Assembly: GCA_900317165.1 (NCBI GenBank)
Contig: ONFU01000008.1
Coordinates: forward strand, 1 to 34,561
DNA length: 34,561 nt
Direction: 5' to 3'
From: an uncultured Erysipelotrichaceae bacterium
GTDB taxonomy: Bacteria > Bacillota_I > Bacilli_A > RFN20 > CAG-826
Part shown: positions 1,916-31,047 of the stretch, piece by piece
Layout of the letters: each line of letters opens with the position of its first letter
Numbering within the stretch: position 1 is the stretch's first letter
Notes under the pieces: generated by a model
The model's database searches: none
Told to the model about the DNA's origin: nothing
The model's input: only the letters and a program-made list of their open reading frames with translations
Position numbers and translations under genes: made by a program

Positions 1916-1968
1916 CCGCAACCTTGTTGTTTTTCGACGTGAGATGAAAACGATAACGGACCTTCGCT

Positions 1969-1977: not shown

Positions 1978-1983
1978 TATTCC

Positions 1984-4041
1984 ATGAAAACAAAACTGCT
2001 CTTTCCTTTAGCCCTATTGCTCATCGGATGTGGCAACGTTCCTTCTTCAAGTGAAACGTCAACCTCATCATCCGAATCCTTTTCGCTAGAAGAAGGGGAA
2101 GTCTTCGCTTACGTTAGGGAAGGAAAGGCCCATATAACTTGGAATTTCCCTGATCATTCTCTTTTTCGGGTTTATGGAAGTGATACCAAATATGGCACCT
2201 ATCAACTTTTAACGGAGAAAAACGGTATAAGGGGTTCCTCCTTTTCCACCCCATCATACCGTTATGGTTATTTCAAAGTTTCCGCCTATGAAGATGGGAA
2301 GGACATCTTTTTGGGCAAAGTCGTATCTCCTCTAGGGGATAACGCCCTCGTCATTGAGGAAAACGATGACCTAGCCAAGGTCCAAGAGGAGATCGACGAA
2401 AGACATAGCCACTTGGAAACCGCGGACGAAGGGCAATTCTCCAGTGACCGTTTCGCCGCCCTTTTCCTTCCTGGTCATTATGAAAGCATAGAAATGAAAC
2501 TTGGCTATTATTCCTCCGCTTTGGGCCTAGGAATGATCCCAGACGATACGGAGGTCGGAAGCCTTTATGTTTCCACTAACGTTCTTGGCAACAACAATTC
2601 GACCTGCACTTTTTGGCGCAACGCCATGAATCTTTCCTTCCCGGATTTCACCCAATTCGCGGTATCGCAGGCGACGTCCTTAAGAAGATGTCATTTCAAG
2701 ACCAATTTGGCATTGGCCCATACTTCCGGTTGGAGCTCTGGCGGATTCCTTGCGGATAGTAAAGTCGATATCCGCATCGAATCGCGTACCCAGCAGCAAT
2801 GGCTTTCCCGCAATGACGAGTTTGGGAAATGGAATGGCAATAGCCATAATTACGTTTTCTCCGGCTGCGTCGGTCAAATGCCCGCCCATTCCTGGAGCGA
2901 ATCAACCTCGAGGACCTCGATTTTGGAGAAGACCACCAAGATGGCCGAAGCCCCCTTCCTTTATGTCGATAATGGGGAATACAAAGTCTTCATCCCTTCT
3001 TTGCGCAAAGAATCGCAAGGCCTTTCCTGGAATGAATCCTCGATGGGCAAAGGAAGAAGCGAGTCGCTTGATTCCTTCTATGTGGCCTTGCCTTCAATCG
3101 ATGATTCCTCTTCCCTTAACGATGCCCTAAGCCAAGGCAAATCGATATTGTTCACTCCCGGAATCTACCATTTAGATACCCCGTTACACGTTAAAAAGGA
3201 GAATTCCGTCCTCATGGGAATCGGTTATCCAACCTTGCAGGTTAAGGACAGCAACGACCAAGGGGCCATCTTGATCGATGATGTCGATGGGGTTAGGGTT
3301 TCCTCCATCCTTTTGGATGCTGGGGCTTATTCCTCATATCTTCTAAAGGCCGGAAAGGAAAAAACCGATACCCGCCATAGCGATAATCCGCTTGTCCTAA
3401 GCGATTTGTTCTGCCGTATCGGCGGGAAGGAGAACGCCCATACCGAAGTCAACGATTCCGTCATCGTCTTCTCCAACGATACTATCGGGGATAACCTTTG
3501 GTTATGGAGAGCCGACCATTCTAGGGGCGTCGCCTGGAACGATAGCGAAGGCGAAGAAGGAAGGAAAACCTATGGTAATCCCGCCTACACGGGTTTAAGG
3601 GTCCTTGGGGACTATGTCAGCATGTATGGGTTGATGGTCGAGCATTTCGAGGAATACCAAACCTATTGGGCTGGCGAATACGGCGAGACCATCATGTATC
3701 AATCGGAGACCCCTTATAGGGTCCCTTCCCAAGACGAATGGTATAACAGTGAACTCGAAAAAGACGGATATGCCTCCTATAAAATCGCGGATAGGGTCGA
3801 CCACCATTTCGCTCTTGGAATAGGGATATACTGGGTTCATTACACCCATGATTTCCTTGAAAGCGCGATCGAAGCCCCAATTAAGGAAGGCATCGATTTG
3901 GAACACCTCGTCACCGTCACTTTCTCCGGCAATTCCACCGGAGGCATCCGCCATGTCGTCAATGACTTCGGAGATGCCGTTGGGGAAGACGGAGAATTTA
4001 GGGCTTTGGTGGAATCCTATCCTTTAAAAGAAGGACTTTGA
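1984..4041 (+). CDS. Surface lipoprotein with pectate-lyase-like beta-helix domain
   Basis: A 685-residue protein with a lipoprotein signal peptide (MKTKLLFPLALLLIGC, lipidated Cys16) and a Ser/Thr-rich linker (about 20-35). A fibronectin-like segment follows, where FRVYGSDTKYGTYQLL resembles the usual repair strand pattern. From about 120 there is a long right-handed beta-helix type region. Its features recall the GH55/pectate-lyase superfamily proteins: FLPGHYESIEMKLGYYSSALGLG, RRCHF, a GGFLADSKVD strand and QQQWLSRN, then a second set from about 395 (ILFTPGIYHLDTPL, GIGYPTLQV). It is likely exposed on the cell surface and polysaccharide-facing, but no catalytic residue can be assigned. Start choice: the signal peptide requires this ATG although it has no SD. 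It is monocistronic; the next gene has its own promoter. Confidence 0.7.
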   Translation: MKTKLLFPLALLLIGCGNVPSSSETSTSSSESFSLEEGEVFAYVREGKAHITWNFPDHSLFRVYGSDTKYGTYQLLTEKNGIRGSSFSTPSYRYGYFKVSAYEDGKDIFLGKVVSPLGDNALVIEENDDLAKVQEEIDERHSHLETADEGQFSSDRFAALFLPGHYESIEMKLGYYSSALGLGMIPDDTEVGSLYVSTNVLGNNNSTCTFWRNAMNLSFPDFTQFAVSQATSLRRCHFKTNLALAHTSGWSSGGFLADSKVDIRIESRTQQQWLSRNDEFGKWNGNSHNYVFSGCVGQMPAHSWSESTSRTSILEKTTKMAEAPFLYVDNGEYKVFIPSLRKESQGLSWNESSMGKGRSESLDSFYVALPSIDDSSSLNDALSQGKSILFTPGIYHLDTPLHVKKENSVLMGIGYPTLQVKDSNDQGAILIDDVDGVRVSSILLDAGAYSSYLLKAGKEKTDTRHSDNPLVLSDLFCRIGGKENAHTEVNDSVIVFSNDTIGDNLWLWRADHSRGVAWNDSEGEEGRKTYGNPAYTGLRVLGDYVSMYGLMVEHFEEYQTYWAGEYGETIMYQSETPYRVPSQDEWYNSELEKDGYASYKIADRVDHHFALGIGIYWVHYTHDFLESAIEAPIKEGIDLEHLVTVTFSGNSTGGIRHVVNDFGDAVGEDGEFRALVESYPLKEGL

Positions 4042-4043
4042 GG

Positions 4044-4072
4044 TTGTTATTTGCCTATAAGGCTTGTATAGT
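4044..4072 (+). promoter_or_regulatory. Promoter of the preQ1-controlled operon
   Basis: TTGTTA at 4044-4049 and TATAGT at 4067-4072 are separated by exactly 17 bp, a good housekeeping-sigma promoter. The predicted transcription start (about 4079) coincides with the first base of the riboswitch stem. Confidence 0.75.
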
Positions 4073-4078
4073 TGCCCA

Positions 4079-4126
4079 CGAAGATGTTCCTTGCCTAACC
4101 ATCTTCGAAATAAAAAACAAGGAGAA
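4079..4126 (+). promoter_or_regulatory. preQ1-I-like riboswitch
   Basis: Stem P1 is CGAAGATG (4079-4086) with CATCTTCG (4100-4107). The 13-nt loop starts TTC and the junction ends AACC, as in known preQ1-I aptamers (UUC...ACC). The tail at 4108-4125 is A-rich and runs straight into the ribosome site, closely like the AUAAAAAACUAAGGAG tail of the Bacillus aptamer. Loop CCTTG (4089-4093) can pair with tail CAAGG (4118-4122), forming the H-type pseudoknot and masking the SD. Ligand binding should therefore repress translation. Placement before a queuosine-precursor transporter fits. P1 is longer than in the best-known examples. Confidence 0.8.
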
Positions 4127-4131
4127 CTGAC

Positions 4132-4908
4132 GTGAAAAAACTCAAATCCCTTTTTCTAGAGGCCAAAGAGTTGATGCGGAGCGTGCCCTCACTTGTGGTC
4201 GCTTCTTTTTTGTTATCCCTCATCGGGATGAACCTATTGGCCAACAAGAGCATCAACCTTCCCCTCGACTTCATGGCCTTAGATGCCGGCATCCTCTTTT
4301 CCTGGGTGTGCTTCCTTTCGATGGATGTCACGATCAGAAGGTTCGGCTTAAGGGCCGCTAACATCCTGACGGTCATCGGACTCTTATTTAACCTCTTCCT
4401 CGCCTTGATATTCTTCCTCGCCGCGATTATCCCTGGCGTGTGGGGCGAATCATTCGTTCCAGGAAGCGAAGATATCATCAACAATGCCTTAAACGGCACG
4501 TTTAGGGGAACTTGGTATGTCCTTTTAGGTTCTTCCGCGGCCTTCTTGGTTTCCGCCTTAACCAACAACTTCCTTAATTTCGGTCTAGGAAAAGTCTTTA
4601 GGGGAGAAGGGAAAGGCAGCTTCTACGCAAGAAGCCTTATCTCGACCTTTGTCGGCCAATTTGTCGATAATCTGGTCTTTGCCCTTATCGTCTCCCTCCA
4701 TTTCTTTGGATGGACCATCACCCAGTGTTTCGTCTGCGCCCTAACAGGCGCGGTTGTTGAACTTCTCTTCGAGGCCATCTTCTCCCCGATTGGCTATAGG
4801 GTAGTCAAAAAATGGGAGAAAGAAGGAGTCGGGGAAGGCTACCTCAAATTGATTAGAAGCAAAAAGGAGGAACCCATACATGAAAATATTGATAACGGGA
4901 ACGAGTAG
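4132..4908 (+). CDS. VUT-family (YhhQ-like) queuosine-precursor transporter
   Basis: A 258-residue integral membrane protein with about six hydrophobic segments (roughly 18-36, 50-66, 75-100, 128-146, 170-190, 195-222). It carries features I associate with the Vut_1/COG1738 family: LDAGILFSWVCFLSMDV followed by RFG, and RSLISTFVGQFVDNLVF in the second half. Family members import preQ0/preQ1/queuine, which fits the preQ1-I-like riboswitch in its leader. The start is a GTG at 4132 with AAGGAGAA 5 nt upstream; that SD is the riboswitch expression platform. The charged C-terminal tail (about 223-258) is cytoplasmic. It overlaps the next gene by 29 bp, so both should be co-translated and co-regulated. 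Confidence 0.75.
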   Translation: MKKLKSLFLEAKELMRSVPSLVVASFLLSLIGMNLLANKSINLPLDFMALDAGILFSWVCFLSMDVTIRRFGLRAANILTVIGLLFNLFLALIFFLAAIIPGVWGESFVPGSEDIINNALNGTFRGTWYVLLGSSAAFLVSALTNNFLNFGLGKVFRGEGKGSFYARSLISTFVGQFVDNLVFALIVSLHFFGWTITQCFVCALTGAVVELLFEAIFSPIGYRVVKKWEKEGVGEGYLKLIRSKKEEPIHENIDNGNE

Positions 4909-5530
4909 AGGCATCGGCAAGGCCATTGCCAAGAAGTTCCTCCAAGAAGGCCATGAAGTCTATGGCATGGATCTTCTGCCTTCTTCCATAGAGCATCCTA
5001 ACTACATCCATTTCATCCATGATGTTCGTGAAGCGGATTATCCGGAAATCATGGGGTTGGAAGCGGTTATCAATAACGCGGGTGTCTCCAACGAAGGGGA
5101 AAGCGATATCGAGACCAATGCCTTAGGAACGATTAGGCTATCCGAACATTATCTCAAAGCGAATTCCCCGAAGGTCTTTCTCAACATCGCAAGTGCTTCC
5201 GCGCGTAATGGATCGGAATTCCCTTATTATGTCGCTTCGAAAGCCGCGGTCGTCGCCTATACAAAGAATCTAGCTTCGCGTATCGCTTCCTATGGAGGTA
5301 TAGCTAACACCATTTCTCCTGGAGGCGTTCTAACGGAAAGCAACAACAGAGTCCTTCTAGACGAGAAGAAGAAGGAAGAGGCGATTGGCGAATCGCTCCT
5401 TGGCAAGTGGGCCAAGGTTGAGGAGATCGCCGAATGGGCCTATTTCCTCGTCACCAAAAACAAATCGATGACGGGTGAGGACATCCTCATCGATAATGGC
5501 GAGATCCTCAAATCAAACTTTGTTTGGTAA
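4880..5530 (+). CDS. Short-chain dehydrogenase/reductase (SDR)
   Basis: A 216-residue classical SDR with an N-terminal Rossmann motif TGTSRGIG (residues 7-14), NNAG near 65-68, a catalytic Ser in NIASAS and the YYVASK active-site Tyr/Lys pair near 114-119, followed by NTISPGG. It would be a cytosolic NAD(P)H-dependent oxidoreductase; the substrate is unknown. FabG-like 3-oxoacyl-ACP reductases look similar but run about 245 residues. SD AAGGAGG (4863-4869) lies inside the preceding gene, 10 nt before the ATG. Its position downstream of a preQ1-type riboswitch suggests shared regulation with precursor uptake, though no link of an SDR to queuosine metabolism is established here. Confidence 0.85.
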   Translation: MKILITGTSRGIGKAIAKKFLQEGHEVYGMDLLPSSIEHPNYIHFIHDVREADYPEIMGLEAVINNAGVSNEGESDIETNALGTIRLSEHYLKANSPKVFLNIASASARNGSEFPYYVASKAAVVAYTKNLASRIASYGGIANTISPGGVLTESNNRVLLDEKKKEEAIGESLLGKWAKVEEIAEWAYFLVTKNKSMTGEDILIDNGEILKSNFVW

Positions 5531-5533
5531 AAG

Positions 5534-5569
5534 AAAACCTTCATTCACAATGGATGAAGGTTTTTTGGT
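5534..5569. terminator. Bidirectional intrinsic terminator
   Basis: AAAACCTTCAT (5534-5544) pairs with ATGAAGGTTTT (5554-5564) across a 9-nt loop. A T-run follows on the plus strand, and the A-run at the other end gives a T-run on the minus strand. It lies between the convergent SDR and plsX genes and can serve both. Confidence 0.9.
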
Positions 5570-6598
5570 TTAGGCTTCTTGTTTCGCGGCGAGCTTGGCG
5601 TTTTCCTCGTCGATAGCTTTGGCAATTGTTTCCTGGATGTTCTTCTTCAATAGGTCATGGGCTTCAAGGAGGGAGAGGCAAATCGCGTCATGCTTAGCCT
5701 TTCCATGGGCCTTGAGGACCAGTTTCTTGACCCCAAGAAGCGGGGCGCTAGCCTTCTTCGCGGCCTTGATGAGTTCGCTAATCTTTCCGAGATGTTTCTT
5801 CATCGTCAAGGCCCCGAGTTTGGTTAGGATGTTCGTATAGAAGACGCCTTTGAAAAGTCCTGAAATCCATAACGCGGTATCCTCGATTGTCTTTACGAAG
5901 ATATTTCCCCAGAAACCATCGCAGACAACCGCGTCGGCTTGGTTATGTACGACATGGTCGGCTTCGATGTTGCCAACGAAATTAAGGTCCGCCTCTTTTA
6001 GAAGGTCGTATGTTTCCTTGGCTAAGGCATTCCCCTTTCCTTCCTCGGCCCCGACATTAAGGAGACCGATGCGAGGATTTTCGAGTCCGATGCCCTTCAA
6101 ATAGGCGTTGACCATGACGGCGAATTGGACGAGGTATTCTGGTTTGCAATCCATGTTGGCCCCGGCGTCAAGCAGTCTGACAAGCTCCCCGTTTTTCTCA
6201 GTGGGCATCGTCGCAAGGAGGGCTGGCCTTTTGACTCCAGGAAGCCTCCCTAATTTGAAGATAGCTCCGCTAAGGACGGCTCCGGTTGGCCCAGCGGTAA
6301 CGACTCCACCGACGTCTTCGCGGTTTTTGGCGGTATCATAAGCCATGGCCAAAGAGCATTTCGGTTTGCTCGTTAAGAAAGAGGCGGGATGGTCCGTATT
6401 GAGGACCGCTTCATCGGATTCGACGATTTCCACGCGGCTCAAATCAGCGCCTTCCTCTTTGATTTTGGCTTCGATTTCATCTTTTCTTCCGACGATGATA
6501 AGCTCGAGATCGCTTTCCTTTTTCAAAGCCTCCGCGGCTCCAAGAAGGATTTCGTTTGGGGCGTTATCGCCGCCTAATGCATCTAGGACTATTTTCAT
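5570..6598 (-). CDS. plsX: Phosphate acyltransferase PlsX
   Basis: A 342-residue protein with the PlsX signature N-terminus MKIVLDALGGDNAP, then VVTAGPTGAVLSGAIFKLGR, RPALLATMP, LLDAGANMDCKPEYLVQFA, LLNVGAEEGKGN, and ADAVVCDGFWGNIFVKTIE. PlsX converts acyl-ACP and phosphate to acyl-phosphate, feeding PlsY in phospholipid synthesis; it is a peripheral membrane enzyme. The frame is open back to 6670, but the family start is the ATG at 6598, which has an AGGAG site about 9 nt upstream; the 24 extra residues are rejected. fabD/fabG/acpP, often clustered with plsX in Bacilli, are not in this window. No FapR-type operator was recognised upstream. Confidence 0.95.
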   Translation of the reverse strand: MKIVLDALGGDNAPNEILLGAAEALKKESDLELIIVGRKDEIEAKIKEEGADLSRVEIVESDEAVLNTDHPASFLTSKPKCSLAMAYDTAKNREDVGGVVTAGPTGAVLSGAIFKLGRLPGVKRPALLATMPTEKNGELVRLLDAGANMDCKPEYLVQFAVMVNAYLKGIGLENPRIGLLNVGAEEGKGNALAKETYDLLKEADLNFVGNIEADHVVHNQADAVVCDGFWGNIFVKTIEDTALWISGLFKGVFYTNILTKLGALTMKKHLGKISELIKAAKKASAPLLGVKKLVLKAHGKAKHDAICLSLLEAHDLLKKNIQETIAKAIDEENAKLAAKQEA

Positions 6599-6684
6599 AT
6601 TCGCAATCTCCTGCCCATATTTTAGGACCATTGTTTCCCTTTCGCTAGCGCCAGCATAAACATGATGCATACGCGCGCCTTTTA

Positions 6685-6693
6685 TGCTACGAT
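6685..6693 (+). promoter_or_regulatory. Extended -10 promoter for the zinc-ribbon/ABC operon
   Basis: TGCTACGAT (TG-n-TACGAT) lies 25 bp upstream of the ATG at 6718, between it and the divergent plsX. No matching -35 is evident. Same form as the elements at 1969, 14167, 21977 and 24975. Confidence 0.45.
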
Positions 6694-6717
6694 ATGCACT
6701 CGCGATAGGGACGAAGC

Positions 6718-8061
6718 ATGAAGAAAGAGGAAATTCTGAAAATCCTTGCCCACACCAAGGGCAATGAAATTGATATCCTCCGCAGCAAAAAATGCGGATG
6801 CGCTTTTTGCTCGTCGATTTTCGATGCCCGCGAAGTCAAGGATTGGGTCAACGAAAACGAAGCGACCTCGGCAAGATGCCCGCGTTGCGGATCCCCTTAT
6901 GTCATCGGTGATGCCGCGATGGAGGGGCTCGACAAAAAGACGTTGTCCCCGATTGTAAAATACCTAAGGAATTCCCTTCCTCAGGAAACTCGTAACGCGG
7001 AGGCGGAAAGGTTCTGCGCCTCCTACCTCCGTCATGAGATTACCCCCTCGGAAGAAGCGGATAACCTTTTCTTCGAATATGCGACTTCCCTTTTCAAAAA
7101 TACCGGGAATATCGAATATATCCCTAGCCTAATCCGTATAACCGCGAGTGGAACCGAATTCCATCAGCCGAACGTCCCCCTTGCTCTGTCTATTGCCATG
7201 GAAAAGGAATTCGACCTTGTTCCGGAGATCCTTTGCCTTAGGGCGAGTCTCCTTGTCATGGTCGAAGACGAACTCGCTCCGAGCAACAAGAGGAGGAAGG
7301 CCTTTGAATGGGCTAGAAAAGCCTGCGAACTAGGCAATCTTTTGGGAAGATGCATCCTCAGTGATTTCTATATGGCCGGAATCGGGGTAAAACAAGATTT
7401 CGATTACGGTTTTTCCCTCCTTGAATCCGAGCTGCCGATGGCCATCAGCGAATTCTTTTGGGGAAACGGGGAAAACCCCAACGATTATTGCCATTTCTTC
7501 ATTCGTCTTTCTTCTTGCTATCTCATCGACGAAGGAAGCCATCGCGCCGATCCTCGTTCCGCGGTCCGTTATGCCTTGTTGGCCAAATACGCTTTGGGGA
7601 AGAATTACGAAGACCTTATCAGTAGCGGAGACCAACTCGCCGTTCACGTCAAAGATACCCTTGCAAGCGCCGCCGAAATGTTTGGCGTCAAAAGCGATGA
7701 GATGATCCTCGACGAGAACACGATGTTCGATACCTTCGTTGATTTTTCCTATAACATCGGTCCGCTTTATATCCATTTCGGCGATTACGATCCAATCGGG
7801 AAGACCCTCTCCTGCCAAATCGCGGAAGGGCTCATGATTCCTTTCATCGATTGTTCCTCTTTAAGGATAGAAACGATCGATGGACCCCATTCATTCACCT
7901 TGAACAATGTCGCTTCCTATGATTTCGACCCTTCCTTCTCTTTCTTCCAATACATTGAGTTCCGCGATAACGAATGGGTGTTCCTCGTTGGTTCACCCCA
8001 AGGAAACGCGGAGATCGGAAGGATCGTTTTCCAAAAAGACAAAGACGGTGACGAGGAATGA
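6718..8061 (+). CDS. Zinc-ribbon protein with Sel1/TPR-like repeats
   Basis: A 447-residue, apparently soluble protein. Residues about 25-65 form a zinc ribbon with two Cys pairs (CGCAFC and CPRCG). The middle contains alpha-helical repeats of Sel1 type, clearest at about 200-245 (AFEWARKACELGNLLGRC, then FYMAGIGVKQDFDYG) and again near 280-300. The last 100 residues are beta-rich (SLRIETIDGPHSF...) with no recognised fold. Sel1 proteins usually mediate protein-protein contacts. The stop overlaps the first ABC gene in ATGA, so it is translationally coupled to the exporter and may be an accessory or regulatory partner. SD is a weak AGGGA about 10 nt upstream. Function unknown. Confidence 0.75.
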   Translation: MKKEEILKILAHTKGNEIDILRSKKCGCAFCSSIFDAREVKDWVNENEATSARCPRCGSPYVIGDAAMEGLDKKTLSPIVKYLRNSLPQETRNAEAERFCASYLRHEITPSEEADNLFFEYATSLFKNTGNIEYIPSLIRITASGTEFHQPNVPLALSIAMEKEFDLVPEILCLRASLLVMVEDELAPSNKRRKAFEWARKACELGNLLGRCILSDFYMAGIGVKQDFDYGFSLLESELPMAISEFFWGNGENPNDYCHFFIRLSSCYLIDEGSHRADPRSAVRYALLAKYALGKNYEDLISSGDQLAVHVKDTLASAAEMFGVKSDEMILDENTMFDTFVDFSYNIGPLYIHFGDYDPIGKTLSCQIAEGLMIPFIDCSSLRIETIDGPHSFTLNNVASYDFDPSFSFFQYIEFRDNEWVFLVGSPQGNAEIGRIVFQKDKDGDEE

Positions 8062-9785
8062 AGAAAGTTACTTCCTTAACGCCTTTAAAGGGCAAGGCCT
8101 TCCTAGTGGCTTTGGCCCCTATGCTCAAACTCGTCGAATGCGTATGCGAACTTTTCGTTCCGATAATCGTTTCCTTGATCATTGATAACGCCTTAACCGA
8201 AACGGGCCCGAATTATGGGGATAAAGGATATGCCCTTGGCTTGGTCGGCCTTGTTTTTGGTTTGGCCTTAGTCGGTTTCATGACTACGATGCTTACCCAA
8301 TACGTAGCCTCGAAAACCTCAAGCGATTACGGATACGATTTAAGGAAACTGATCTTTAGGAAGATTACTTCGCTTTCTCCTAGCGAACTCGATGAATTCG
8401 GTCGTAACAAAGCCCTTAACCTCGCGGGAAGCGATGCCCTTTCCGTCCAAAACGGGGTCATGATGTTCATGCGTTTGTTAGCAAGGGCCCCCTTCCTTCT
8501 TATAGGTTCGATAGTCGCTTCCTTCATCCTTTCCCCAATAGGCGGGACGATCGTCTTGGTCGCGATGGTCTTCTGCGCGATTTCGATCGCGACGGTCATC
8601 CTTTTAACCCCTAAACAATATGGCAAACTCCAAAACGAGTTGGACCGTATATCGATTCTTGGGGAAGACGCTTTGACAGGGAGAAGGCTAATCAGGGCCT
8701 TCAATCGGCAAAGCAAACAGCAGGAGGAATTCCTCGAAGCCGATTCCAAATACCGTAAGAGGGCGATTCTCCTTGTGAAAATCAATTCCTTAACGAATCC
8801 GCTCACCTTCGCCTTTGCTAACGCGGGCGTCCTATTCGTCCTTTATCTTCTTGGGGTAAATGGACAAGCCAATATGCCTTTTACCGTGGGTGTTGGCGTT
8901 GCCCTTATCAATTACTTGACCCAGTCTTTGGCGGCTTTCTTGCAGTTCACACGCCTTTTGACCGTCTTAAGTCGGGCCTATGCCTCCAAAAAACGTATCG
9001 ACGCTTTCTTGGCCAAGGAGACCAATCTCCTAGAAGGAGAGAAGGAAGTCACATGCCAAGAAGGGGATATCGTTTCCTTCAAAAACGTCTCCAAGGGCTT
9101 CGGCGGAGAGAAGAACGTTCTTGATGACATATCCTTCTCGGTGAAGAAAGGCGAGAAGATTGGTGTCTTTGGGGCTACAGGAAGCGGTAAGAGCGTCTTG
9201 ATGCGTCTTCTTTGCCGCGAATATGATCCCTCCGAAGGAGAAATATCGATATATGGGTCCCCTATTTCTTCCTATAAGTTAAGTTCCTTAAAGAAATCCA
9301 TTTCCTATTGCGGGGCCTCTTCGGGCTTCTTCCGCGGGTCCATTAGGGACAACATTTCCTTAGGAAGGTCTTTCTCCGATGAGGAGATCCTCCTCGCTTT
9401 GGAAAAGGCGCAGGCCAAAGGATTCGTCCTCGATTATGAAGATGGCCTAGACCATGAAGTCGAGGATAAGGGGAGCAATTTCTCAGGTGGGCAAAAGCAG
9501 CGTCTTTTACTTGCTAGGAGTTTGCTAGAAGAAGCGGATATCGCCATATATGATGATGCGATGTCCGCGCTAGATAACCTTACCGAAAAACGCGTGAGGG
9601 ATTCCCTTCTTGCTTCGAAATCCACGACCTTCATCGTTTCCCAAAAGGTTTCCTCCTTCGTTTCCACCGATAAGGTCATCGTCCTCCAAGACGGAAGGAT
9701 CTACGCCTATGGGACCCATGAAGAATTGCTGAAGACCTGCGATTTCTACGCGAAGGTCAACGATATCCAAAGGAGGCAGATGTAA
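8058..9785 (+). CDS. ABC exporter half-transporter with degenerate ATPase site
   Basis: A 575-residue fused membrane/ATPase protein of the MsbA/LmrC type. About six transmembrane helices occupy residues 15-300 and the nucleotide-binding domain about 335-575. Walker A is GATGSGKS (372-379) and the signature is FSGGQ (475-479). The Walker B Asp is D499, but the catalytic Glu position is Asp (D500) and the H-loop His is Gln (Q529, in FIVSQKVSS). These are the substitutions known from the degenerate subunit of heterodimeric exporters such as TM287/288, BmrCD and LmrCD. Partner: the next gene, which supplies the canonical Glu and His. Substrate unknown (multidrug, lipid or peptide). ATGA overlap with the upstream gene. 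Confidence 0.92.
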   Translation: MKKVTSLTPLKGKAFLVALAPMLKLVECVCELFVPIIVSLIIDNALTETGPNYGDKGYALGLVGLVFGLALVGFMTTMLTQYVASKTSSDYGYDLRKLIFRKITSLSPSELDEFGRNKALNLAGSDALSVQNGVMMFMRLLARAPFLLIGSIVASFILSPIGGTIVLVAMVFCAISIATVILLTPKQYGKLQNELDRISILGEDALTGRRLIRAFNRQSKQQEEFLEADSKYRKRAILLVKINSLTNPLTFAFANAGVLFVLYLLGVNGQANMPFTVGVGVALINYLTQSLAAFLQFTRLLTVLSRAYASKKRIDAFLAKETNLLEGEKEVTCQEGDIVSFKNVSKGFGGEKNVLDDISFSVKKGEKIGVFGATGSGKSVLMRLLCREYDPSEGEISIYGSPISSYKLSSLKKSISYCGASSGFFRGSIRDNISLGRSFSDEEILLALEKAQAKGFVLDYEDGLDHEVEDKGSNFSGGQKQRLLLARSLLEEADIAIYDDAMSALDNLTEKRVRDSLLASKSTTFIVSQKVSSFVSTDKVIVLQDGRIYAYGTHEELLKTCDFYAKVNDIQRRQM

Positions 9786-9786
9786 G

Positions 9787-11508
9787 ATGTTCTCCTCCTT
9801 GAAGACTTTGTTCCGCCTTTTCAAAGGTCATAGCCTCTATCTTTCCTTTACCTTCCTTTTCGCGGCTTTATCGATTTCCTCGAAGATGGCGATTCCTTTC
9901 CTTACGGGCAAAGTCATCGACATCCTTTCCAAAGGTTTCGTTTTTGAGGATTTGACCCCATATCTATTCACGATTATGGGTCTTCTAATCTTCGGGGCCA
10001 TCACCCGTTATTTCTTCGATTTCCTTTCGGGAAGACTCGTCGAACGGGTTCTCTTCGATTTGCGTAATAAGCTTCATGACGCGATTCTTAACGCGGACAT
10101 CTCCTCCCTCGATTCGTATAAACAAGGGGACATGCTATCGAGGATGCTATCCGATATCGATACGGTCCAACGCGGCCTTCTTTCCGGCGTAATGGCTCTT
10201 TACGAAGGCATCGTCCAAATCCTTATAACTGTGGTCTTCATGATAATCCTTTCCCCAATCCTAACGGCCGCGGTTATCGTCCTCACCCCGTTATCGATGG
10301 TGGTAAGCCGCTTCATCGCCAAAAAGAACGCGAATTCCTTCACGGAGCAAAACGCTTCCTTGGGCGAGTTATCCGCGTTCACCCTCGAATGCCTGAATAA
10401 CGCCAAAACGGTGAACGATTACGGATTATGGGAAGATAAGGAGAAGGAGTTTGAGGAAAAGGCCAAAACCCTCAGGAAGAGCAATTTCAAAGCCTCCTTC
10501 GCCGCGAGTTTAATCAACCCCTCCACGAGGTTAGTGAATAACACGATTTACGCCGTTCTTATCCTTCTTGGCGTTATCTTCCTTATCGAGAAGCCTTCCT
10601 TTGTCGGAGCCTTCACCGTTGGGGCTTTAGCTTCCTTCCTATCTTACGCATATCAATACATGGCTCCCTTCAACGAGATTGCCGACGCGGGTAGCGACAT
10701 GATTTTCGCTTCCGTCGCGGTTAAACGTATCGAAGAAGGCATCAACCTCAAGTTAGAAAACAAGGAAGGAAAAGAAATTAACGAACCCATTACCTCGTTA
10801 ACCGTCGATAATGTCGATTTCGGATACACCAAGGAACGCCTTGTCCTTAAGGACATCAACCTCCATATCGAAAAGGGCATGAAGGTCGCTTTGGTTGGCC
10901 CAACAGGCTGTGGGAAGACCACCTTGCTCTCTCTTTTGATGCGCTTTTACGATCAGCAAAGCGGTTCATTCCATTTTAACGGAGGGGATTTCTCCGCCCT
11001 CTCGATTGATTCCATAAGGGGAAAAGAAGGAGTCATCTTACAAGAAGCCTTGCTCCTATCGATGAGCATCGCGGATAACATCGCCTTAGGAAAAGCCGAT
11101 GCCTCCAGGGAGGAAATCATGGAAGCCGCGAAGAAAGCGGGCGCGGACGATTTTATCCGCGCATTGCCAAATGGCTACGACACGATGGTCGGAAGGAACG
11201 ATGGTTTGTCCGAGGGGCAGAAGCAGCTGATTAACCTTGCTCGCGTCCTCCTTCTTGATAAAGATGTCCTTCTCCTTGACGAAGCGACTTCCCATATCGA
11301 TTTGTTGACGGAGATTAGATTAAGCGAAAGCTTTGCTTTGTTATGCAAAGGGAAAACAAGCCTTATCGTCGCCCATCGCCTTTCGACAATCGCCGACAGC
11401 GATTTGATCCTCGTCATGGATAAAGGGGTCATCGTCGAAAGGGGAACGTTCGACGAACTATTGAAGCAAAACGGCTTCTTCGCGAAGCTATATCATAGCC
11501 AGCTTTAA
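9787..11508 (+). CDS. ABC exporter half-transporter with canonical catalytic residues
   Basis: A 573-residue partner of the preceding exporter subunit. It has a six-helix membrane domain (about 15-310) and an ATPase domain with Walker A GPTGCGKT (371-378), Walker B LLLDEATS (D498, catalytic E499) and H-loop VAHRLST (His530). Its signature is LSEGQ (474-478) rather than LSGGQ. In the heterodimer the active site would therefore combine this subunit's Walker A/B with FSGGQ of the first, and the other site would be doubly degenerate. SD AGGAGG (9771-9776) sits at the end of the upstream gene; only one base separates stop and ATG. Its stop overlaps the convergent GNAT stop within TTAA. Confidence 0.92.
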   Translation: MFSSLKTLFRLFKGHSLYLSFTFLFAALSISSKMAIPFLTGKVIDILSKGFVFEDLTPYLFTIMGLLIFGAITRYFFDFLSGRLVERVLFDLRNKLHDAILNADISSLDSYKQGDMLSRMLSDIDTVQRGLLSGVMALYEGIVQILITVVFMIILSPILTAAVIVLTPLSMVVSRFIAKKNANSFTEQNASLGELSAFTLECLNNAKTVNDYGLWEDKEKEFEEKAKTLRKSNFKASFAASLINPSTRLVNNTIYAVLILLGVIFLIEKPSFVGAFTVGALASFLSYAYQYMAPFNEIADAGSDMIFASVAVKRIEEGINLKLENKEGKEINEPITSLTVDNVDFGYTKERLVLKDINLHIEKGMKVALVGPTGCGKTTLLSLLMRFYDQQSGSFHFNGGDFSALSIDSIRGKEGVILQEALLLSMSIADNIALGKADASREEIMEAAKKAGADDFIRALPNGYDTMVGRNDGLSEGQKQLINLARVLLLDKDVLLLDEATSHIDLLTEIRLSESFALLCKGKTSLIVAHRLSTIADSDLILVMDKGVIVERGTFDELLKQNGFFAKLYHSQL

Positions 11509-24891: not shown

Positions 24892-24916
24892 AGCGCTCAG
24901 TCATGGGCGCTTTTTC
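24892..24916 (+). terminator. Intrinsic terminator after the P-type ATPase
   Basis: AGCGCTCA (24892-24899) pairs with TGGGCGCT (24904-24911, one wobble) around GTCA, then TTTTTCC. Confidence 0.9.
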
Positions 24917-25014: not shown

Positions 25015-28000
25015 ATGAGGAATCCTAACATACCTGGCGTCGAGTACGTGACATCGTCCATCTCGGACGTAAGGTCCCACTCGCTCGTGAACGACCGCGG
25101 GCAGACCTCCTTCCTGGAGGTGCCGCTCGTCGAGGAGATCCTCGGCTGGCCGTTCCCGGTGTCGCTGCTCTTCCCGGTCGGGCAAGACCCGTCCCTTACC
25201 GAGGGAAGCCTCAGCATCTGCTGGTCCCTCTCGCTCGTCTCGGGGTCGGTCGTCCTCAAGCGGCCGTGCCTCCCCGACCTGCCCTTCGCGCCGGTCGAGA
25301 ACACCCAGCTCTACGTGTGCAGGAGCACAGGGCAGATCGTGGAGTCCACCGAAGACGGCCTGATCCTGCGCGAAGGCGGTGTCAAGTACGTATTCCCCTC
25401 CGAGGGGGGAGGGCTCTCGTCCTTCTCCATAGGGGGTCGGGAGTTCGCGGTGCAACGAACCGAAACGAGCTTCTCTGCCTCGACATCCGGTCCCGGCGCC
25501 GGCTTCTCGATAGAGTTCGTGGCCCTGGGAAACGACAGATCCAGGGTCAGGCTGACAAGGACCTGGGCGACCCTCCCGGAGAAGGTTCTCGTGGAGGCGG
25601 AGGGAAGCGAGTCAAACGCCTCCTATTCGATCTCAGTCTCGAGGCGGGTGGCCGCCACCCCCGTCGAAAGGGAGGTCGCCCTATCGATGCAGGATGGCAC
25701 GCTCACAGCGTCGGAGACGTTCGCGGCGGAGCCCGGGAGGTCGGAGGTTTTATCGGTCTCGCTCGTCCAGTCGGAGACGCTGATAACCGCCACCGTCGGG
25801 CAGAGGGTGGAGGAGACGACGATCTCCATGGCCTCCGCCAAGACCGTCAGGGTCGAGCGTCCGGACGGATCCGTCGCGCTTTACGGGCTCTGCGCAGGCC
25901 AGTCCGGCCCGGTCGGCACCCTCGTGTGCTCCGCGGTCACGGACAGGGGCGAGGCCTCCTCCATGAGGTTCGACCAGGACGGCGCCCCCATCGAGTCCTC
26001 CGACCCGACGGACCTGCGCGCGGCCGGATCCCAGTTTAGATCTATGTCCGGCGGTGCCTCCGACTTCTCTGGCGGGTGGTCCCTCACCGGGGCGGCCCAC
26101 CTGGAGCAGGATGGGCCGTTCGCCTTGCCGGGGGCCCTCGGCGGCGGGTGGGTCGGCTTCGGTACGGGCGGGAACGCCGCCAGGGCCGCCGATTCCCTCC
26201 CGTACCCAGGGGAGCCAACCCTCCTCGCGGCGCTCGTCGTCTGCGGCGGGGCCTCGGTGTCGATCGGCGTCGACGCCTCCACGTCCCTCGGGCAGGAGTC
26301 CATTTCCTCAACCCTCCCGGCGTCGGAATGCCCGGAGGGATGCCTCAGGCTGGTATGCCTCCCCGTCGAGCTCTCCGGCACGCCGTCTTCCGCCAGCGTG
26401 TGGGTGTCCTCGGGCGCCTGCCACCTCAAGTCATTCGCCTGGCTCCGCGGCCTCACCGCGTCCAGGTTCTCGCGCGACTTCCTCGGGCGCGCCACCGCCA
26501 CATCCAGAGGGGGCGTCCTCTCCGGTTCCTATTACGACGGCAGCTCCCCCTTCTCGGAGTCGGACCCGGGCGGCGGCCGCACTATCCGCGACCCGGAGAC
26601 CGGACTGCCCACCCTTTCCGTGGACGACCTCGGCGACAGGGAGGAGCGGGCCTACCTGACGGGGGAGGGCGCGACGCCACTGCACCCGCTCCCGCTATCA
26701 TCGACAACGTCCGCGGGCGGGCTTTCCCGCACGTCGTCTGTGCGACTCGGCAGACTGACCCTCGAGCCGGTGTTCGGGTCATCCGACGGGGTTTCCACGT
26801 CCTACGGAAGGGTGGAATCCGAGGCCGCGTTGAACGTCACCAGGGCCATTGGGGGGCGTTTCTCCTCCGAGACGCTCGACACCGCGTCCGGGTCGGTGTC
26901 TTTCTCCCTGCCGTCCGGGCAAACCCAGTATAGGACGGAGTCCATGGGGCTCGTGACCTCGCTCTCGGACTTGGCCGATTCGTTTTCCTTCGGAAGCGAC
27001 TCCTTGAGGCGCCTTTCGGAGGTATCCTACCCATGGGGCGCGACCTCATCGTATGCATACGAGGAGGGCCCGTTCGGCAGGCTCTCCTCCGGCTCGTCGT
27101 ACGGTTCGACGACCTCCTTCCTCTACGACGCGCTCGACAGGCCCACCCTGGTATCCGAGGGCTCCGGCCCATCGGCCAGGTCGTTCTCGTTCTCTTACGA
27201 CGGCGCGTCCTACGACGCCATGGCCTCGTCCTCCCTCGGCTCGTCCTGGTCGTCCTCCGGCCCCGGCAGGTCCGATTTGGGGGAATCCTCGGCCGTCTCG
27301 ATCGCATCCGGCCCGCAGAGAGCGGAGGTCGGAAGGCTCGGCGGCTCCAGCGTGTCGACATCGCACGGGAGCGGGAGGGTCCTGGGCTCCGTCTCCGGCG
27401 GGGGCCGCGTCTGCTCGCCGGACAGGAAGTCGTGGTTCGCGGCCATAGGCATGGCCGGGCTCGCCAGGGCCAGGCTTTGGGACACCGACCCCCTGGGCCC
27501 CTCCGGGGGCACCGGGAGCGGCCCGGCCCTCATCGCGGGGGCCACCGAATACCAGCCGTCGGGGACCGTCGCTTCCGGGACGAGGTCCGCCTCGGGGACG
27601 GTCTGCCTGAGGTTCTCGGGGAGGTCCCAGTACGGCCCCTTCCCCGCCGCCGAGGAGGGGCGCTTCCCCGCGGCCGTCGTCTCTTTCGTGCCGCCCGGCG
27701 GTTCCTCCCAGGTTATTTCAGTCACGGGATTCTCGTCGGGCGAAGAGGTCCTCTCCGTCTCCGTGTCCTCCGGCGTGGCCTACGTGTCCGGATCGCGTCT
27801 CCAGGGGTCGCCCGTGGCGCTTGGGTCCGTATCCGGAGGCCCCAACTGCGTGGTGGTCGCCTTCTGGTCCAGCACCTCCGGGGTCGCCGTCCTCAACGGC
27901 GTCCCCACAGCCCTCGCGTTCGGGGACGCGGGCGTGCAAACTGGCGCCTCGTTTTTCTCCGTCGGCAGGCCATTCCTAACGCTGGAGGTCCATTCGCTCG

Positions 28001-30519
28001 CCTACGGCCATTGCCAGATGGGGCCGGACGAGGCGGTGTCGCTATGCCTCTCCACGATGGACTCCTGCCCATCCGCGTCCTCGGCCGAGCCGCCATCCGG
28101 GCTTTCATGCGCCGTCAGGAGGATCGCGTTCGAGGAATGCTGCCTGGCCCAGTCCGAGGACAGACCGAACCTCAGGAGGGTTCCCCTAAACGGGTCGCTA
28201 GGGACCACGGACGCCGCCGCCCCCTCGAAGGTTGCGCGCCCTGCCGGCGTCGGCGTGTCGCCCGACCCGTTCCTCTCGGGCGCCAGGGCCCTCAGCCCGG
28301 CTCCGTTCGCCTTCGAGCCCTCCTCCCGCAGGTTCATGTGGAGGGCGTTCGGCAGGGGGCTTTCCTACGCGTGCCAAAGCCCCGGCGGGCTGTACTTCTC
28401 CGCGCTGGTGCGCCCATCCCCCGTCCAGGACGGCAGGAGGAGGGTCATAGCGGAGGCCAGGTCGGGGGCGTCGTTCCTCTCGCTCTTCGCACGCTCGGGG
28501 AGGCTTTTCGTCTCGACCGCGTCCGGGGAGGTCCAGACCAGCCTATCCCTGCCGGACTCCGCGGTTTCAAGGGTTAGTCTCAAACTGCGAGTGGAGCTTT
28601 TGCCGCTCGGGCCCGTGCCCGTCGCCGAGGTTTACGTTCAGGGGTCGCTCCCCTGGCTCGGCTTCGTCGCGGACCCGGGCCTCGGCCAGTCGTGCGAGCT
28701 CTGGCTCGGCTCGGCCGATGGCGGCGCCGACCCCATGCTGGGGCTGATCGGCGACGTGTGGACCGACGGGGAGCCGTCAAGGACGCTTGACCAGTGCGCC
28801 TCCGACGAGTCGGCCTACGGCGCGTGCCTCGAGGAGGGGTTCGACGCGCTCGGCAGGCGGTCATACGGCCTTTCGAAGTGCGCCGGAAGGTCGGTGGACG
28901 GGTCCTTCATATACGGGTCCGACCAGCCCTCGGGGGACCTCTCGAGGCCCTGCGAGGTGGTGGTCTCGGTCGACGGTTCCCAGAGGTACGACACGGTGCT
29001 CGGGTACGGGCCCGACGGGCTTCTCTCTTGCGTGGACTCCGTAGACGTAAAACGCGACCGTGGGGCCAGGGTGGCCGGGGCCCTCGGGCAGTCCGTTACC
29101 TACGACCGCAAGGGGAACGTATCTGCCGTCAGCGGGCTCTCGGGCGTTGCCCCTTCGAGATCAATCACTTTCTCCGAGGGCCAGACGGGCCTTCTCGTCT
29201 CCTCGGCAACGGTCGGGAACAGGGTCAGGTCGTACGCCTACCCGACCCCGAACCACGGGCTCCCCTCGTCGATATCGACGTCGGGGCCGGGCTATTCGTC
29301 AACACTCTCGCTCTCCTGGTCGGGCCGCAGGCTCGCCTCGGCCACCGTCGGCCAGGAGGCGGCGGAGTACACATACGGACCCGACGGGTTCCTCGCGTCC
29401 AGGAGGAGCGGCGCGTCGGTAAGGGGGTACGCCTTTTCTGAAGACGGGAGGCTCCTCTCGGACCTGGGAGGCCCGCTGGAGTTCCATTACGTCTACTTCC
29501 CCTCCGGCGCGCCCGGCCTTGCCGTGACCATAGACGGCAACGGCGTCCCCGAGGCGCACCTCGTCGTGCAGGACGCCCTCGGGAGGATCGCGGGCCTCGC
29601 CTCCTCCTCGGGCGGGGAGGCCTCCTACGCCTACGACCTCTGGGGAATCCCATCCCTCGTATCCGACACCACCCAGAGGGGGGTCGGGTCCGCCAACAAA
29701 CTCCTTTTCGTCGGATACCTCTACGACGACCTCCTCGGGACCTACGCCCTCGGCGTCAGGCATTATGACCCCGTCGTCTGCAGGTTCGTCGAGCCCGACG
29801 GATTCAGCTACCTCGATCCATCGTCGGTCGACGGGCTCAACCCCTTCGCCTACTGCGCCGGGGACCCTTTGACGTATGTAGATCCAACGGGAACGGTTCC
29901 TATTGTTGTAGCCATGTTACTCATTGCCGTAGGTGCTGGCGCTGCCATTGGAGCTACATCAAATGTGATCACACAGTACATTTCCAATGATGGCTGGGAC
30001 AATTTCAATTGGGCTTTATTGGGATGGAATACTATTGTTGGAGCTGCTAGCGGAGCATTAGCTATGTCAACACTTGGGCCTTGGGCGATGGTTTTTGCCA
30101 ACGCTGGGTTGGCCGCCGTTGGCTCTGTGGGGAATCACCTAATTTCGGGAGACGACTTCGGCTGCCTGGGAACGTGGGGCGACATAATGATTACCGGCTT
30201 TATCGGTGGTTTTGCCGGACTACTCGGGGGCCCAGGAGCATTGTATAAAAACAATGTTAACGCGGCAGCGTCTCAATTGACCAAGGCCGCCAATTCATAC
30301 ATTAAGGTTATCTCGAAGGCTTCCTCGGGTGGATATGCTACTACCAAAGGTGCTAATATTGCCTTGGGGTTAACTAGAAATAACTTAATTCGTGCCTTTA
30401 ACACGCTCAATTCTAGAGTTGCTTTGGCCGGGGGGTCGTTGTTTACATCTATTCGTGCATCGGCCTTCGTAGAAATAGGCGAAGCTTTCGTTTTTGGATT
30501 GTGGAACCGAGGTCGGTGA
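25015..30519 (+). CDS. Giant RHS/YD-repeat protein with exchanged C-terminal tip (polymorphic toxin-like)
   Basis: An 1834-residue protein. N-terminal third (1-about 500) is beta-rich and unrecognised, with no signal peptide. YD-type repeats begin near 680 (SYAYEEGPFGRLSS, FLYDALDRPTLVSEG). Two segments at about 850-1010 and 1100-1260 look like LamG/concanavalin-type sandwiches inserted between repeats. YD repeats resume to about 1600 (YDTVLGYGPDGLLS, YTYGPDGFLASRR), and the canonical RHS core end is present: GYLYDDLLGTYALGVRHYDP, FVEPDGFSYLD, NPFAYCAGDPLTYVDPTG (ending at 1626). In RHS toxins this core encapsulates and delivers a variable C-terminal effector. Composition is far GC-richer than neighbours up to about 29870, then changes sharply. 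ATG 25015 has an SD. The export route is unclear. Confidence 0.88.
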   Translation: MRNPNIPGVEYVTSSISDVRSHSLVNDRGQTSFLEVPLVEEILGWPFPVSLLFPVGQDPSLTEGSLSICWSLSLVSGSVVLKRPCLPDLPFAPVENTQLYVCRSTGQIVESTEDGLILREGGVKYVFPSEGGGLSSFSIGGREFAVQRTETSFSASTSGPGAGFSIEFVALGNDRSRVRLTRTWATLPEKVLVEAEGSESNASYSISVSRRVAATPVEREVALSMQDGTLTASETFAAEPGRSEVLSVSLVQSETLITATVGQRVEETTISMASAKTVRVERPDGSVALYGLCAGQSGPVGTLVCSAVTDRGEASSMRFDQDGAPIESSDPTDLRAAGSQFRSMSGGASDFSGGWSLTGAAHLEQDGPFALPGALGGGWVGFGTGGNAARAADSLPYPGEPTLLAALVVCGGASVSIGVDASTSLGQESISSTLPASECPEGCLRLVCLPVELSGTPSSASVWVSSGACHLKSFAWLRGLTASRFSRDFLGRATATSRGGVLSGSYYDGSSPFSESDPGGGRTIRDPETGLPTLSVDDLGDREERAYLTGEGATPLHPLPLSSTTSAGGLSRTSSVRLGRLTLEPVFGSSDGVSTSYGRVESEAALNVTRAIGGRFSSETLDTASGSVSFSLPSGQTQYRTESMGLVTSLSDLADSFSFGSDSLRRLSEVSYPWGATSSYAYEEGPFGRLSSGSSYGSTTSFLYDALDRPTLVSEGSGPSARSFSFSYDGASYDAMASSSLGSSWSSSGPGRSDLGESSAVSIASGPQRAEVGRLGGSSVSTSHGSGRVLGSVSGGGRVCSPDRKSWFAAIGMAGLARARLWDTDPLGPSGGTGSGPALIAGATEYQPSGTVASGTRSASGTVCLRFSGRSQYGPFPAAEEGRFPAAVVSFVPPGGSSQVISVTGFSSGEEVLSVSVSSGVAYVSGSRLQGSPVALGSVSGGPNCVVVAFWSSTSGVAVLNGVPTALAFGDAGVQTGASFFSVGRPFLTLEVHSLAYGHCQMGPDEAVSLCLSTMDSCPSASSAEPPSGLSCAVRRIAFEECCLAQSEDRPNLRRVPLNGSLGTTDAAAPSKVARPAGVGVSPDPFLSGARALSPAPFAFEPSSRRFMWRAFGRGLSYACQSPGGLYFSALVRPSPVQDGRRRVIAEARSGASFLSLFARSGRLFVSTASGEVQTSLSLPDSAVSRVSLKLRVELLPLGPVPVAEVYVQGSLPWLGFVADPGLGQSCELWLGSADGGADPMLGLIGDVWTDGEPSRTLDQCASDESAYGACLEEGFDALGRRSYGLSKCAGRSVDGSFIYGSDQPSGDLSRPCEVVVSVDGSQRYDTVLGYGPDGLLSCVDSVDVKRDRGARVAGALGQSVTYDRKGNVSAVSGLSGVAPSRSITFSEGQTGLLVSSATVGNRVRSYAYPTPNHGLPSSISTSGPGYSSTLSLSWSGRRLASATVGQEAAEYTYGPDGFLASRRSGASVRGYAFSEDGRLLSDLGGPLEFHYVYFPSGAPGLAVTIDGNGVPEAHLVVQDALGRIAGLASSSGGEASYAYDLWGIPSLVSDTTQRGVGSANKLLFVGYLYDDLLGTYALGVRHYDPVVCRFVEPDGFSYLDPSSVDGLNPFAYCAGDPLTYVDPTGTVPIVVAMLLIAVGAGAAIGATSNVITQYISNDGWDNFNWALLGWNTIVGAASGALAMSTLGPWAMVFANAGLAAVGSVGNHLISGDDFGCLGTWGDIMITGFIGGFAGLLGGPGALYKNNVNAAASQLTKAANSYIKVISKASSGGYATTKGANIALGLTRNNLIRAFNTLNSRVALAGGSLFTSIRASAFVEIGEAFVFGLWNRGR
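29893..30519 (+). other. RHS C-terminal tip: Gly-rich hydrophobic linker plus unassigned effector
   Basis: Residues 1627-1834 of the RHS protein, after DPTG. The first about 120 residues contain several Gly/Ala-rich hydrophobic helices (VPIVVAMLLIAVGAGAAIGA, WNTIVGAASGALAMS, DIMITGFIGGFAGLLGG) resembling the pre-toxin linker seen in many Firmicutes RHS proteins. The last about 85 residues (from NAAASQLTKAAN to FGLWNRGR) match no toxin fold I know and are short for an effector. They could be a membrane-active toxin, or a remnant. G+C by hand count: 45/60 at 29581-29640 versus 28/60 at 29941-30000. Confidence 0.6.
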
Positions 30520-30525
30520 TTATTT

Positions 30526-31047
30526 ATGACTTCGGAAACTATATTGGACATAATTCTTGGATCTGTGCTTGGGTTAGCCCATCTTTTGAGCGCGATCTAC
30601 ATCATCTTTTGGAGGAGAAAAAAATATAGTAAGGGTATTCACACCACACATATTGGGGCCACGATGCTGTTTTTTTCCGTCTGCATGGGTGTTGTCCTCC
30701 CGATAGGAGGGTTTACGTATCCCGATGGCGGACAGAGCGGAACTAAGGCATTGATCACTGCAATGGTTATTTGTCCATTTCCGCTCGTGGCTTCGCTAAG
30801 ATTCCTGTGTTTCTGTGTTTTTATCGACGAAAAATCGGTGATCGAAAGAGTGCTGTGGTTCGAAAAAAGGATACGCCTCGATGAGCCGGGCACATTGATT
30901 CTTTTGGACAATTCTTATGGGAGACTTGTTATATCAATCATATCTGAGGATAAAAAGAAAATGATCGAAATCAACGAACGCCATTTTTTGGGGGACGTAT
31001 CGGACTTTTTGGAAGCCTGTAAAAAAATCCGCAAGGAAAATCTGTGA
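30526..31047 (+). CDS. Membrane protein with PH-like domain, candidate immunity protein
   Basis: A 173-residue protein beginning 6 nt after the RHS stop. It has three hydrophobic segments (about 8-29, 42-63 and 75-101) and then a soluble domain of about 70 residues with alternating strands and a final helix (VIERVLWFEKRIRLDEP..., LVISIISEDKKKMIEI, then GDVSDFLEACKKI), reminiscent of a PH-like fold. The gene is AT-richer than the RHS core and matches the composition of the RHS tip, as expected if tip and partner moved together. By position it is the immunity gene; membrane location suits protection against a membrane-acting effector. GAGGT about 14 nt upstream is a weak SD, so coupling to RHS is likely. 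Confidence 0.65.
   Translation: MTSETILDIILGSVLGLAHLLSAIYIIFWRRKKYSKGIHTTHIGATMLFFSVCMGVVLPIGGFTYPDGGQSGTKALITAMVICPFPLVASLRFLCFCVFIDEKSVIERVLWFEKRIRLDEPGTLILLDNSYGRLVISIISEDKKKMIEINERHFLGDVSDFLEACKKIRKENL

What the first reader, a model, noticed from the sequence alone, without database searches (positions are those of the whole stretch)
25015..31047. RHS toxin-like locus with membrane-type immunity candidate
An 1834-residue YD-repeat protein ends in a standard RHS core motif (DPTG at 1623-1626), then a 208-residue hydrophobic, Gly-rich tip with no effector fold I recognise. A three-helix, PH-like membrane protein begins 6 nt later. A membrane-located immunity protein paired with a hydrophobic tip suggests a membrane-targeting effector. 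The RHS protein lacks an N-terminal signal peptide and no secretion genes are in the window, so the delivery route is unknown.
Basis: partly seen in the sequence, partly recalled or inferred. Interest (0 to 1): 0.8.

Follow-up and report, generated by a model that had tools for sequence, protein, structure and literature searches.

The report
Rhs toxin with PH-type membrane immunity
A gut- or rumen-type Bacilli bacterium carries a giant Rhs protein whose fast-evolving, oily C-terminal tip is followed by a gene for a membrane protein with a PH domain that very probably protects the cell from that tip: a known kind of bacterial weapon in an uncatalogued version.

Summary
In detail: an 1834-aa Rhs protein (25015..30519), DPTG at 1623-1626, a 208-aa hydrophobic tip, and 6 nt later a 173-aa protein that AlphaFold2 models as three TM helices plus a PH-fold domain (pLDDT 87; PDB matches nearly all PH/PTB). 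The toxin-immunity reading gains strong support. Four related tips in two families of the order are each followed by a homologue of the partner. Orphan partner genes occur, some in genomes with no detected Rhs. Against a sister genome, dN/dS is 0-0.12 in flanking genes, 0.27 in the Rhs body, 1.99 in the last 94 residues of the tip and 0.72 in the partner. One correction: a hydrophobic stretch right after the core is generic here (26 of 29 Rhs tips with soluble partners have one too). The specificity-bearing part is the last ~94 residues. Invariant residues of the tip family include no Asp, Glu, His, Cys or Arg, which speaks for a membrane-inserting effector, not an enzyme. Secretion remains unexplained: no signal peptide, no WXG100, EssC or VgrG-type genes in the genus. 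It works like Tse5/Tsi5. Neither tip nor partner matches Pfam, NCBIfam or PADLOC. Verdict: a new variant of a known kind; membrane killing itself is inferred.

The parts
24892..24911 (+). terminator-like hairpin after the cation-ATPase gene, separating it from the Rhs gene
   Evidence: pattern scan, 8-bp stem followed by a T run; consensus match only
25015..30519 (+). Rhs protein, 1834 aa; GC 68% in the body against 46-49% in the rest of the window
   Evidence: ORF, TIGR03696 core, GC
29632..29892 (+). Rhs-associated core domain (residues 1540-1626), ends DPTG
   Evidence: TIGR03696 E=1.9e-15
29893..30234 (+). hydrophobic Gly/Ala-rich module of the tip (residues 1627-1740), glycine-zipper-like GGFAGLLGGPGA near its end; shared with other Rhs tips of the order
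   Evidence: dN/dS 0.66
30235..30516 (+). fast-evolving C-terminal tail of the tip (residues 1741-1834), proposed effector/specificity region
   Evidence: dN/dS 1.99 against 0-0.12 in flanking genes
30526..31047 (+). 173-aa partner, proposed immunity protein
   Evidence: 6 nt downstream; homologues next to homologous tips; AF2 model
30532..30807 (+). three TM helices of the partner (residues 3-36, 42-64, 70-94)
   Evidence: AF2 and hydropathy
30814..31029 (+). PH-fold domain of the partner (residues 97-168), predicted cytosolic
   Evidence: AF2 pLDDT ~84-90; Foldseek and VIA-align

Best explanation
This is a polymorphic Rhs toxin and its cognate immunity gene. Rhs body and core (shown by profile for the core) are presumed to form the usual Rhs cocoon that holds the C-terminal tip (inferred from known Rhs structures). 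After delivery to a competitor, the 208-aa tip, a hydrophobic helical module plus a variable ~94-aa tail, inserts into the cytoplasmic membrane and permeabilises or depolarises it (inferred). The producer and its kin are protected by the downstream three-TM protein, which sits in the membrane with its PH-fold domain on the cytosolic side and blocks insertion or assembly by binding the tail (structure predicted; binding and protection inferred). The export route is unknown.
For: (1) Linkage: tip homologues in G030 (86%), G018 (57%) and G079 (42%) are each followed directly by a partner homologue, although the partner family is present in only 12 of 279 genomes of the order. (2) Orphan partners: G025 and G249 carry the partner but gave no Rhs core match. 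In G249 it lies next to a second membrane protein that resembles, by eye, the partners following Rhs tips in G011 and G100. In G055 and G080 it lies within arrays of tip and immunity cassettes. This is the usual pattern of immunity genes. (3) Evolution against G030: dN/dS 0-0.12 in six flanking genes, 0.27 body, 0.66 hydrophobic module, 1.99 tail, 0.72 partner, with dS in the tip about that of the body; replacement-to-silent excess against flanks p=1e-10 (tail) and 3e-11 (partner). (4) GC steps down at DPTG from 68% to 49% and 43%. (5) Partner model pLDDT 87 with PH fold. (6) Survey of 66 tip-partner pairs: C-terminal 80 aa more hydrophobic when the partner is a membrane protein, median 0.31 against -0.36, p=1e-5. 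(7) The 28 invariant positions of the tip family include no Asp, Glu, His, Cys or Arg.
Against: No activity is shown. The tip model is unusable (pLDDT 46). dN/dS above 1 in the tail is not significant by itself (p=0.21), so relaxed constraint is not excluded. The delivery route is missing. A hydrophobic start is common to tips with soluble partners. One related tip (G043) has no partner gene directly downstream.
Confidence: 0.62

Rival explanations
1. Toxin-immunity pair, but the hydrophobic module is only an entry/translocation (pre-toxin) segment and the ~94-aa tail acts elsewhere, for example on another membrane protein or a cytosolic target close to the membrane.
For: A hydrophobic segment near the start of the tip is equally common in tips with soluble partners, 26/29 against 30/31, including tips that end in soluble domains with conserved His/Trp (L038, L061, L096). 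The tail evolves fastest.
Against: The last 80 residues have few charged residues (15%), the tip family has no invariant catalytic-type residue, and the partner is a membrane protein.
Confidence: 0.22
2. The partner is an export or membrane-chaperone factor for the signal-less Rhs protein rather than an immunity protein. PH-domain membrane proteins DdE/DdF are reported to take part in transport of the leaderless bacteriocin enterocin DD14 (PMC8657885).
For: Fold and TM architecture resemble that class; the Rhs protein has no signal peptide.
Against: Partner genes occur in genomes without a detected Rhs core (G025, G249), evolve fast together with the tip, and are replaced by unrelated soluble proteins in other Rhs loci.
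Confidence: 0.1
3. The tip is a decaying, non-toxic remnant and the high dN/dS is relaxed constraint.
For: dN/dS above 1 is not individually significant; split tips exist in other arrays of the order (L135, L170).
Against: Intact frames and an adjacent partner in four species, with 28 invariant positions across tips at 30-57% identity to the window's.
Confidence: 0.06

Closest known systems
Tse5/Tsi5 of Pseudomonas aeruginosa (PMC9637101, PMC10684867)
   Same: Rhs protein with a hydrophobic, non-enzymatic C-terminal tip reported to form membrane pores; adjacent integral-membrane immunity protein (two predicted TM regions)
   Different: Tse5 is a T6SS effector with a PAAR-like N-terminus and VgrG4; no VgrG-type gene was found here; the partner here has three TM helices plus a PH domain; sequence relation to Tse5 was not tested
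WapA/Rhs proteins of Gram-positive bacteria (for example Streptococcus suis WapA-CT1, PMC12704120)
   Same: Gram-positive Rhs polymorphic toxins with variable C-terminal tips and adjacent immunity genes
   Different: WapA has a Sec signal peptide and wall-anchoring domains; no signal peptide is apparent here
LXG membrane-depolarising toxins EsxX/TelE and TspA/TsaI (PMC12744356)
   Same: Firmicute polymorphic toxins that depolarise membranes, with glycine-zipper motifs; TspA is countered by a membrane immunity protein
   Different: Delivered by T7SSb with LXG/WXG partners, not found in this genus; EsxX immunity ExiAB is soluble
bPH2 proteins YdbS/YdbT and DdE/DdF (PMC8657885)
   Same: Bacterial TM plus PH-domain proteins, DdE/DdF linked to a membrane-active bacteriocin
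   Different: Two-TM or six-TM/three-PH layouts, reported in transport; the partner here has no Pfam match, three TM helices and sits behind an Rhs tip
Imm-CdiI and Imm17 (PMC3482391)
   Same: Membrane immunity proteins of polymorphic toxins
   Different: Two TM helices only; the held text of that catalogue does not contain the words PH domain or pleckstrin

Membership tests
Rhs polymorphic toxins | Rhs-associated core domain next to a variable C-terminal tip | tested here: met
   TIGR03696 E=1.9e-15, above cut-off; tips differ between Rhs proteins sharing the core
Rhs polymorphic toxins | cognate immunity gene directly downstream | tested here: met
   gene 6 nt downstream; four conserved pairs; protection itself not tested
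Rhs polymorphic toxins | classical YD repeats | tested here: inconclusive
   RHS_repeat E=0.03 below cut-off; three YD-like motifs
T6SS Rhs effectors (Tse5 type) | T6SS/VgrG in the genome | tested here: not met
   no Phage_base_V match in 31 genomes of the genus; window genome 84% complete
WapA | N-terminal Sec signal peptide | tested here: not met
   no charged plus hydrophobic N-terminus by eye and no upstream in-frame start; no dedicated signal-peptide predictor was available
T7SSb LXG toxins | EssC and WXG100 partners | tested here: not met
   EssC hits only FtsK-like and below cut-off; no WXG100 in 31 genomes
Tse5-like pore-forming tips | ion-conducting pores and membrane depolarisation | not testable with these tools
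   needs electrophysiology or dye assays
PH-fold membrane proteins (bPH2-like) | TM helices followed by a PH-fold domain | tested here: met
   AF2 pLDDT 87; PH/PTB matches, best Z 8.1 over 80 residues at 3.6 A, DUF1696 PH protein 3dcx Z 7.3; Z values are modest
PH-fold membrane proteins (bPH2-like) | sequence membership of a Pfam bPH family | tested here: not met
   no Pfam match at E up to 1

The most novel reading that the evidence does not exclude
TM-hairpin plus PH-domain proteins are a broad, uncatalogued class of immunity proteins against membrane-acting Rhs tips in these Bacilli: 22 of 31 membrane partners in the survey share the layout of 2-3 N-terminal TM segments and a C-terminal tail of 70 aa or more while mostly unrelated in sequence. 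The Rhs proteins would be delivered by a route that is neither Sec, T6SS nor T7SS.
Probability: 0.25. Interest if true: 0.65.

Novelty: new variant of a known kind. Interest (0 to 1): 0.47.

Why it matters
If right, it adds a PH-domain membrane immunity family and a non-enzymatic Rhs tip family to the catalogue, in uncultured gut/rumen-type Bacilli where Rhs proteins are common (68 of 279 genomes of the order) but no delivery system is known. It offers a testable case for how a membrane-acting Rhs tip is neutralised from within the membrane.

Tried and rejected
Pfam, NCBIfam, PADLOC and PHROGs scans of tip and partner: no significant match. PDB sequence search with the partner profile: nothing credible. 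Viral contigs with tip and partner profiles: no relatives. AlphaFold2 of the tip from five sequences: pLDDT 46, all-helical, not used for fold searches. Profile comparison of the partner with the other Rhs membrane partners: only the direct family matches, so a shared PH fold in the rest is a guess from layout. Comparison of the tip tail with other tails: no significant match outside the family. Housekeeping role for the partner rejected: 12 of 279 genomes in the order; in class and phylum samples all hits lie in the same order. Enzyme tip judged unlikely for lack of catalytic-type invariants. The limit of two structure jobs prevented modelling a tip-partner complex or other partners. Literature searches for PH domain plus immunity protein plus polymorphic toxin gave no paper, within an open-access library only.

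Full report
What is there. The ORF at 25015..30519 encodes 1834 residues, with DPTG at 1623-1626 and a significant Rhs-associated core domain at 1540-1626 (TIGR03696, E=1.9e-15). Classical RHS/YD repeats are only weakly recognisable (RHS_repeat E=0.03, below cut-off). GC is 68% in the Rhs body, 49% in the tip and 43% in the partner, against 46-49% in the rest of the window. The 173-aa ORF starts 6 nt after the Rhs stop. A terminator-like hairpin separates the upstream cation-ATPase gene from the Rhs gene. The downstream genes include an S66 peptidase on the other strand.

The partner. Eleven homologues from the same order were aligned. AlphaFold2 gave mean pLDDT 87 with TM helices 3-36, 42-64 and 70-94, six short strands and a C-terminal helix in 97-168. 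Foldseek and VIA-align matches are almost all PH, PTB or FERM-F3 domains, including the bacterial DUF1696 PH protein 3dcx. The Z-scores are modest (up to 8.1), but the list is uniform. The Arg/Lys-rich stretch at 30-36 and the PH domain would lie on the cytosolic side by the positive-inside rule (inference). No Pfam, NCBIfam, PADLOC or PDB sequence match was found.

Linkage and orphans. The same tip and partner stand together in G030 (tip 86%, partner 87-88%), G018 (56-57%, 45-48%) and G079 (tip 42%; another family of the order, inside an array of tip cassettes). A more distant tip in G045 (30%) is followed by an unrelated membrane protein. The partner family is found in 12 of 279 genomes of the order, one of them a weak hit (G003), and in no other order in samples of the class (395 genomes) and phylum (392). 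Without its own tip it occurs in cassette arrays (G055, G080), alone (G025, G026, G064, G225), and in G249 beside a second membrane protein that resembles, by eye, the partners following Rhs tips in G011 and G100. G025 and G249 gave no Rhs core match. Both are incomplete assemblies (G025 83%, G249 91%), so a missed Rhs gene is possible. This pattern fits immunity genes and not a housekeeping or obligatory Rhs chaperone role.

Evolution. Compared codon by codon with G030, dN/dS is 0.00-0.12 in six flanking genes, 0.27 in the Rhs body, 0.66 in tip residues 1627-1740, 1.99 in residues 1741-1834 and 0.72 in the partner; dS in the tip (0.064) is about that of the body (0.058). The excess of replacements over flanking genes is strong for the tail (p=1e-10) and the partner (p=3e-11) and holds against the body too (p=0.0002 and 0.002), but dN/dS above 1 in the tail is not significant alone (p=0.21). 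Partner changes lean towards TM2-TM3 (11 of 22), not significantly (p=0.08).

Which part of the tip matters. I surveyed 100 Rhs core ends of the order and kept 66 tip-partner pairs, the window's included: 31 partners with two or more TM segments, 29 with none, 6 with one. Hydropathy was used for TM calls, so these counts are approximate. A hydrophobic segment near the start of the tip is nearly universal (30/31 and 26/29), so it cannot by itself mark a membrane effector. The last 80 residues are more hydrophobic when the partner is a membrane protein (median Kyte-Doolittle 0.31 against -0.36, p=1e-5); the window's tip scores 0.22. At the level of sequence family, however, the hydrophobic module of this tip resembles modules in tips with membrane partners more than those with soluble partners (p=0.006; for example L106, L156, L112, L182), while the tails are not recognisably related. 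In L107, counted as having no partner, a membrane-type ORF lies about 250 nt downstream. The tip family has 28 invariant positions, none of them Asp, Glu, His, Cys or Arg, and the window's tip has glycine-zipper-like motifs (GGFAGLLGGPGA).

How it most likely works. Shown: gene structure, core domain, PH-type membrane partner (predicted structure), conserved pairing, orphan partners and fast evolution of tail and partner. Inferred: antibacterial activity, membrane insertion of the tip, neutralisation by the partner and encapsulation by the Rhs shell. The closest functional model is Tse5/Tsi5, a pore-forming Rhs tip with a membrane immunity protein (PMC9637101, PMC10684867). For LXG toxins, membrane-depolarising domains with glycine zippers are known, and membrane immunity for TspA (PMC12744356). 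PH-domain membrane proteins have been tied to transport of a leaderless bacteriocin (PMC8657885), which is why an export role was weighed as a rival.

Delivery. No signal peptide is apparent; in 31 genomes of the genus there is no WXG100, no EssC over cut-off (only FtsK-like matches) and no Phage_base_V. Several Rhs proteins of relatives also start without an obvious signal (by eye). WapA proteins use Sec (PMC12704120), so the route here is open. Incomplete assemblies limit the negative results.

Other membrane partners. 22 of 31 have 2-3 N-terminal TM segments and a C-terminal tail of 70 aa or more; in a rough control of 53 ORFs the same layout turned up in 10, all of them Rhs-linked genes or homologues of the partner. 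Their sequences are unrelated to the window's partner by single-sequence profile comparison. Whether they too have PH folds was not tested; this is the most novel reading.

Verdict. A real and probably functional Rhs toxin-immunity locus; a new variant of a known kind rather than a new principle.

Noticed in passing
window 1401..1904 (+): A 167-aa protein matches MuF_C (PF18819, E=8e-7), a domain of phage-borne polymorphic toxins, standing alone.
   Followed up: no
L038 (G055:C28), L061 (G080:C1), L062 (G079:C6): Tandem arrays of short ORFs that start at the Rhs core end (MYADPSGH..) and carry a tip, most followed by a small immunity candidate: probably silent cassettes, some ending in soluble domains rich in His/Trp.
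   Followed up: partly
L170 (G055:C28) against L181 (G080:C1); L135 (G184:C39): Tip cassettes split into two reading frames in one genome, the first of them intact in another.
   Followed up: no
window 25015..29892: The Rhs body is 68% GC against 46-49% in the rest of the window; the same in G030 and G018 (69%) and weaker in G027 (62%), but not in G017 (50%).
   Followed up: partly
L044 (G043:C2) 1079..6211: A related Rhs tip with no same-strand gene directly downstream, so no obvious immunity gene.
   Followed up: no
L034 (G018:C132) 6074..7237: A transposase-like ORF (387 aa) directly downstream of the G018 tip-partner pair, followed by further orphan tip cassettes.
   Followed up: no
window 8058..11508: Two adjacent ABC transporter ORFs (membrane plus ATPase domains) behind a Sel1-like protein; no sign of a link to the Rhs gene.
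   Followed up: no
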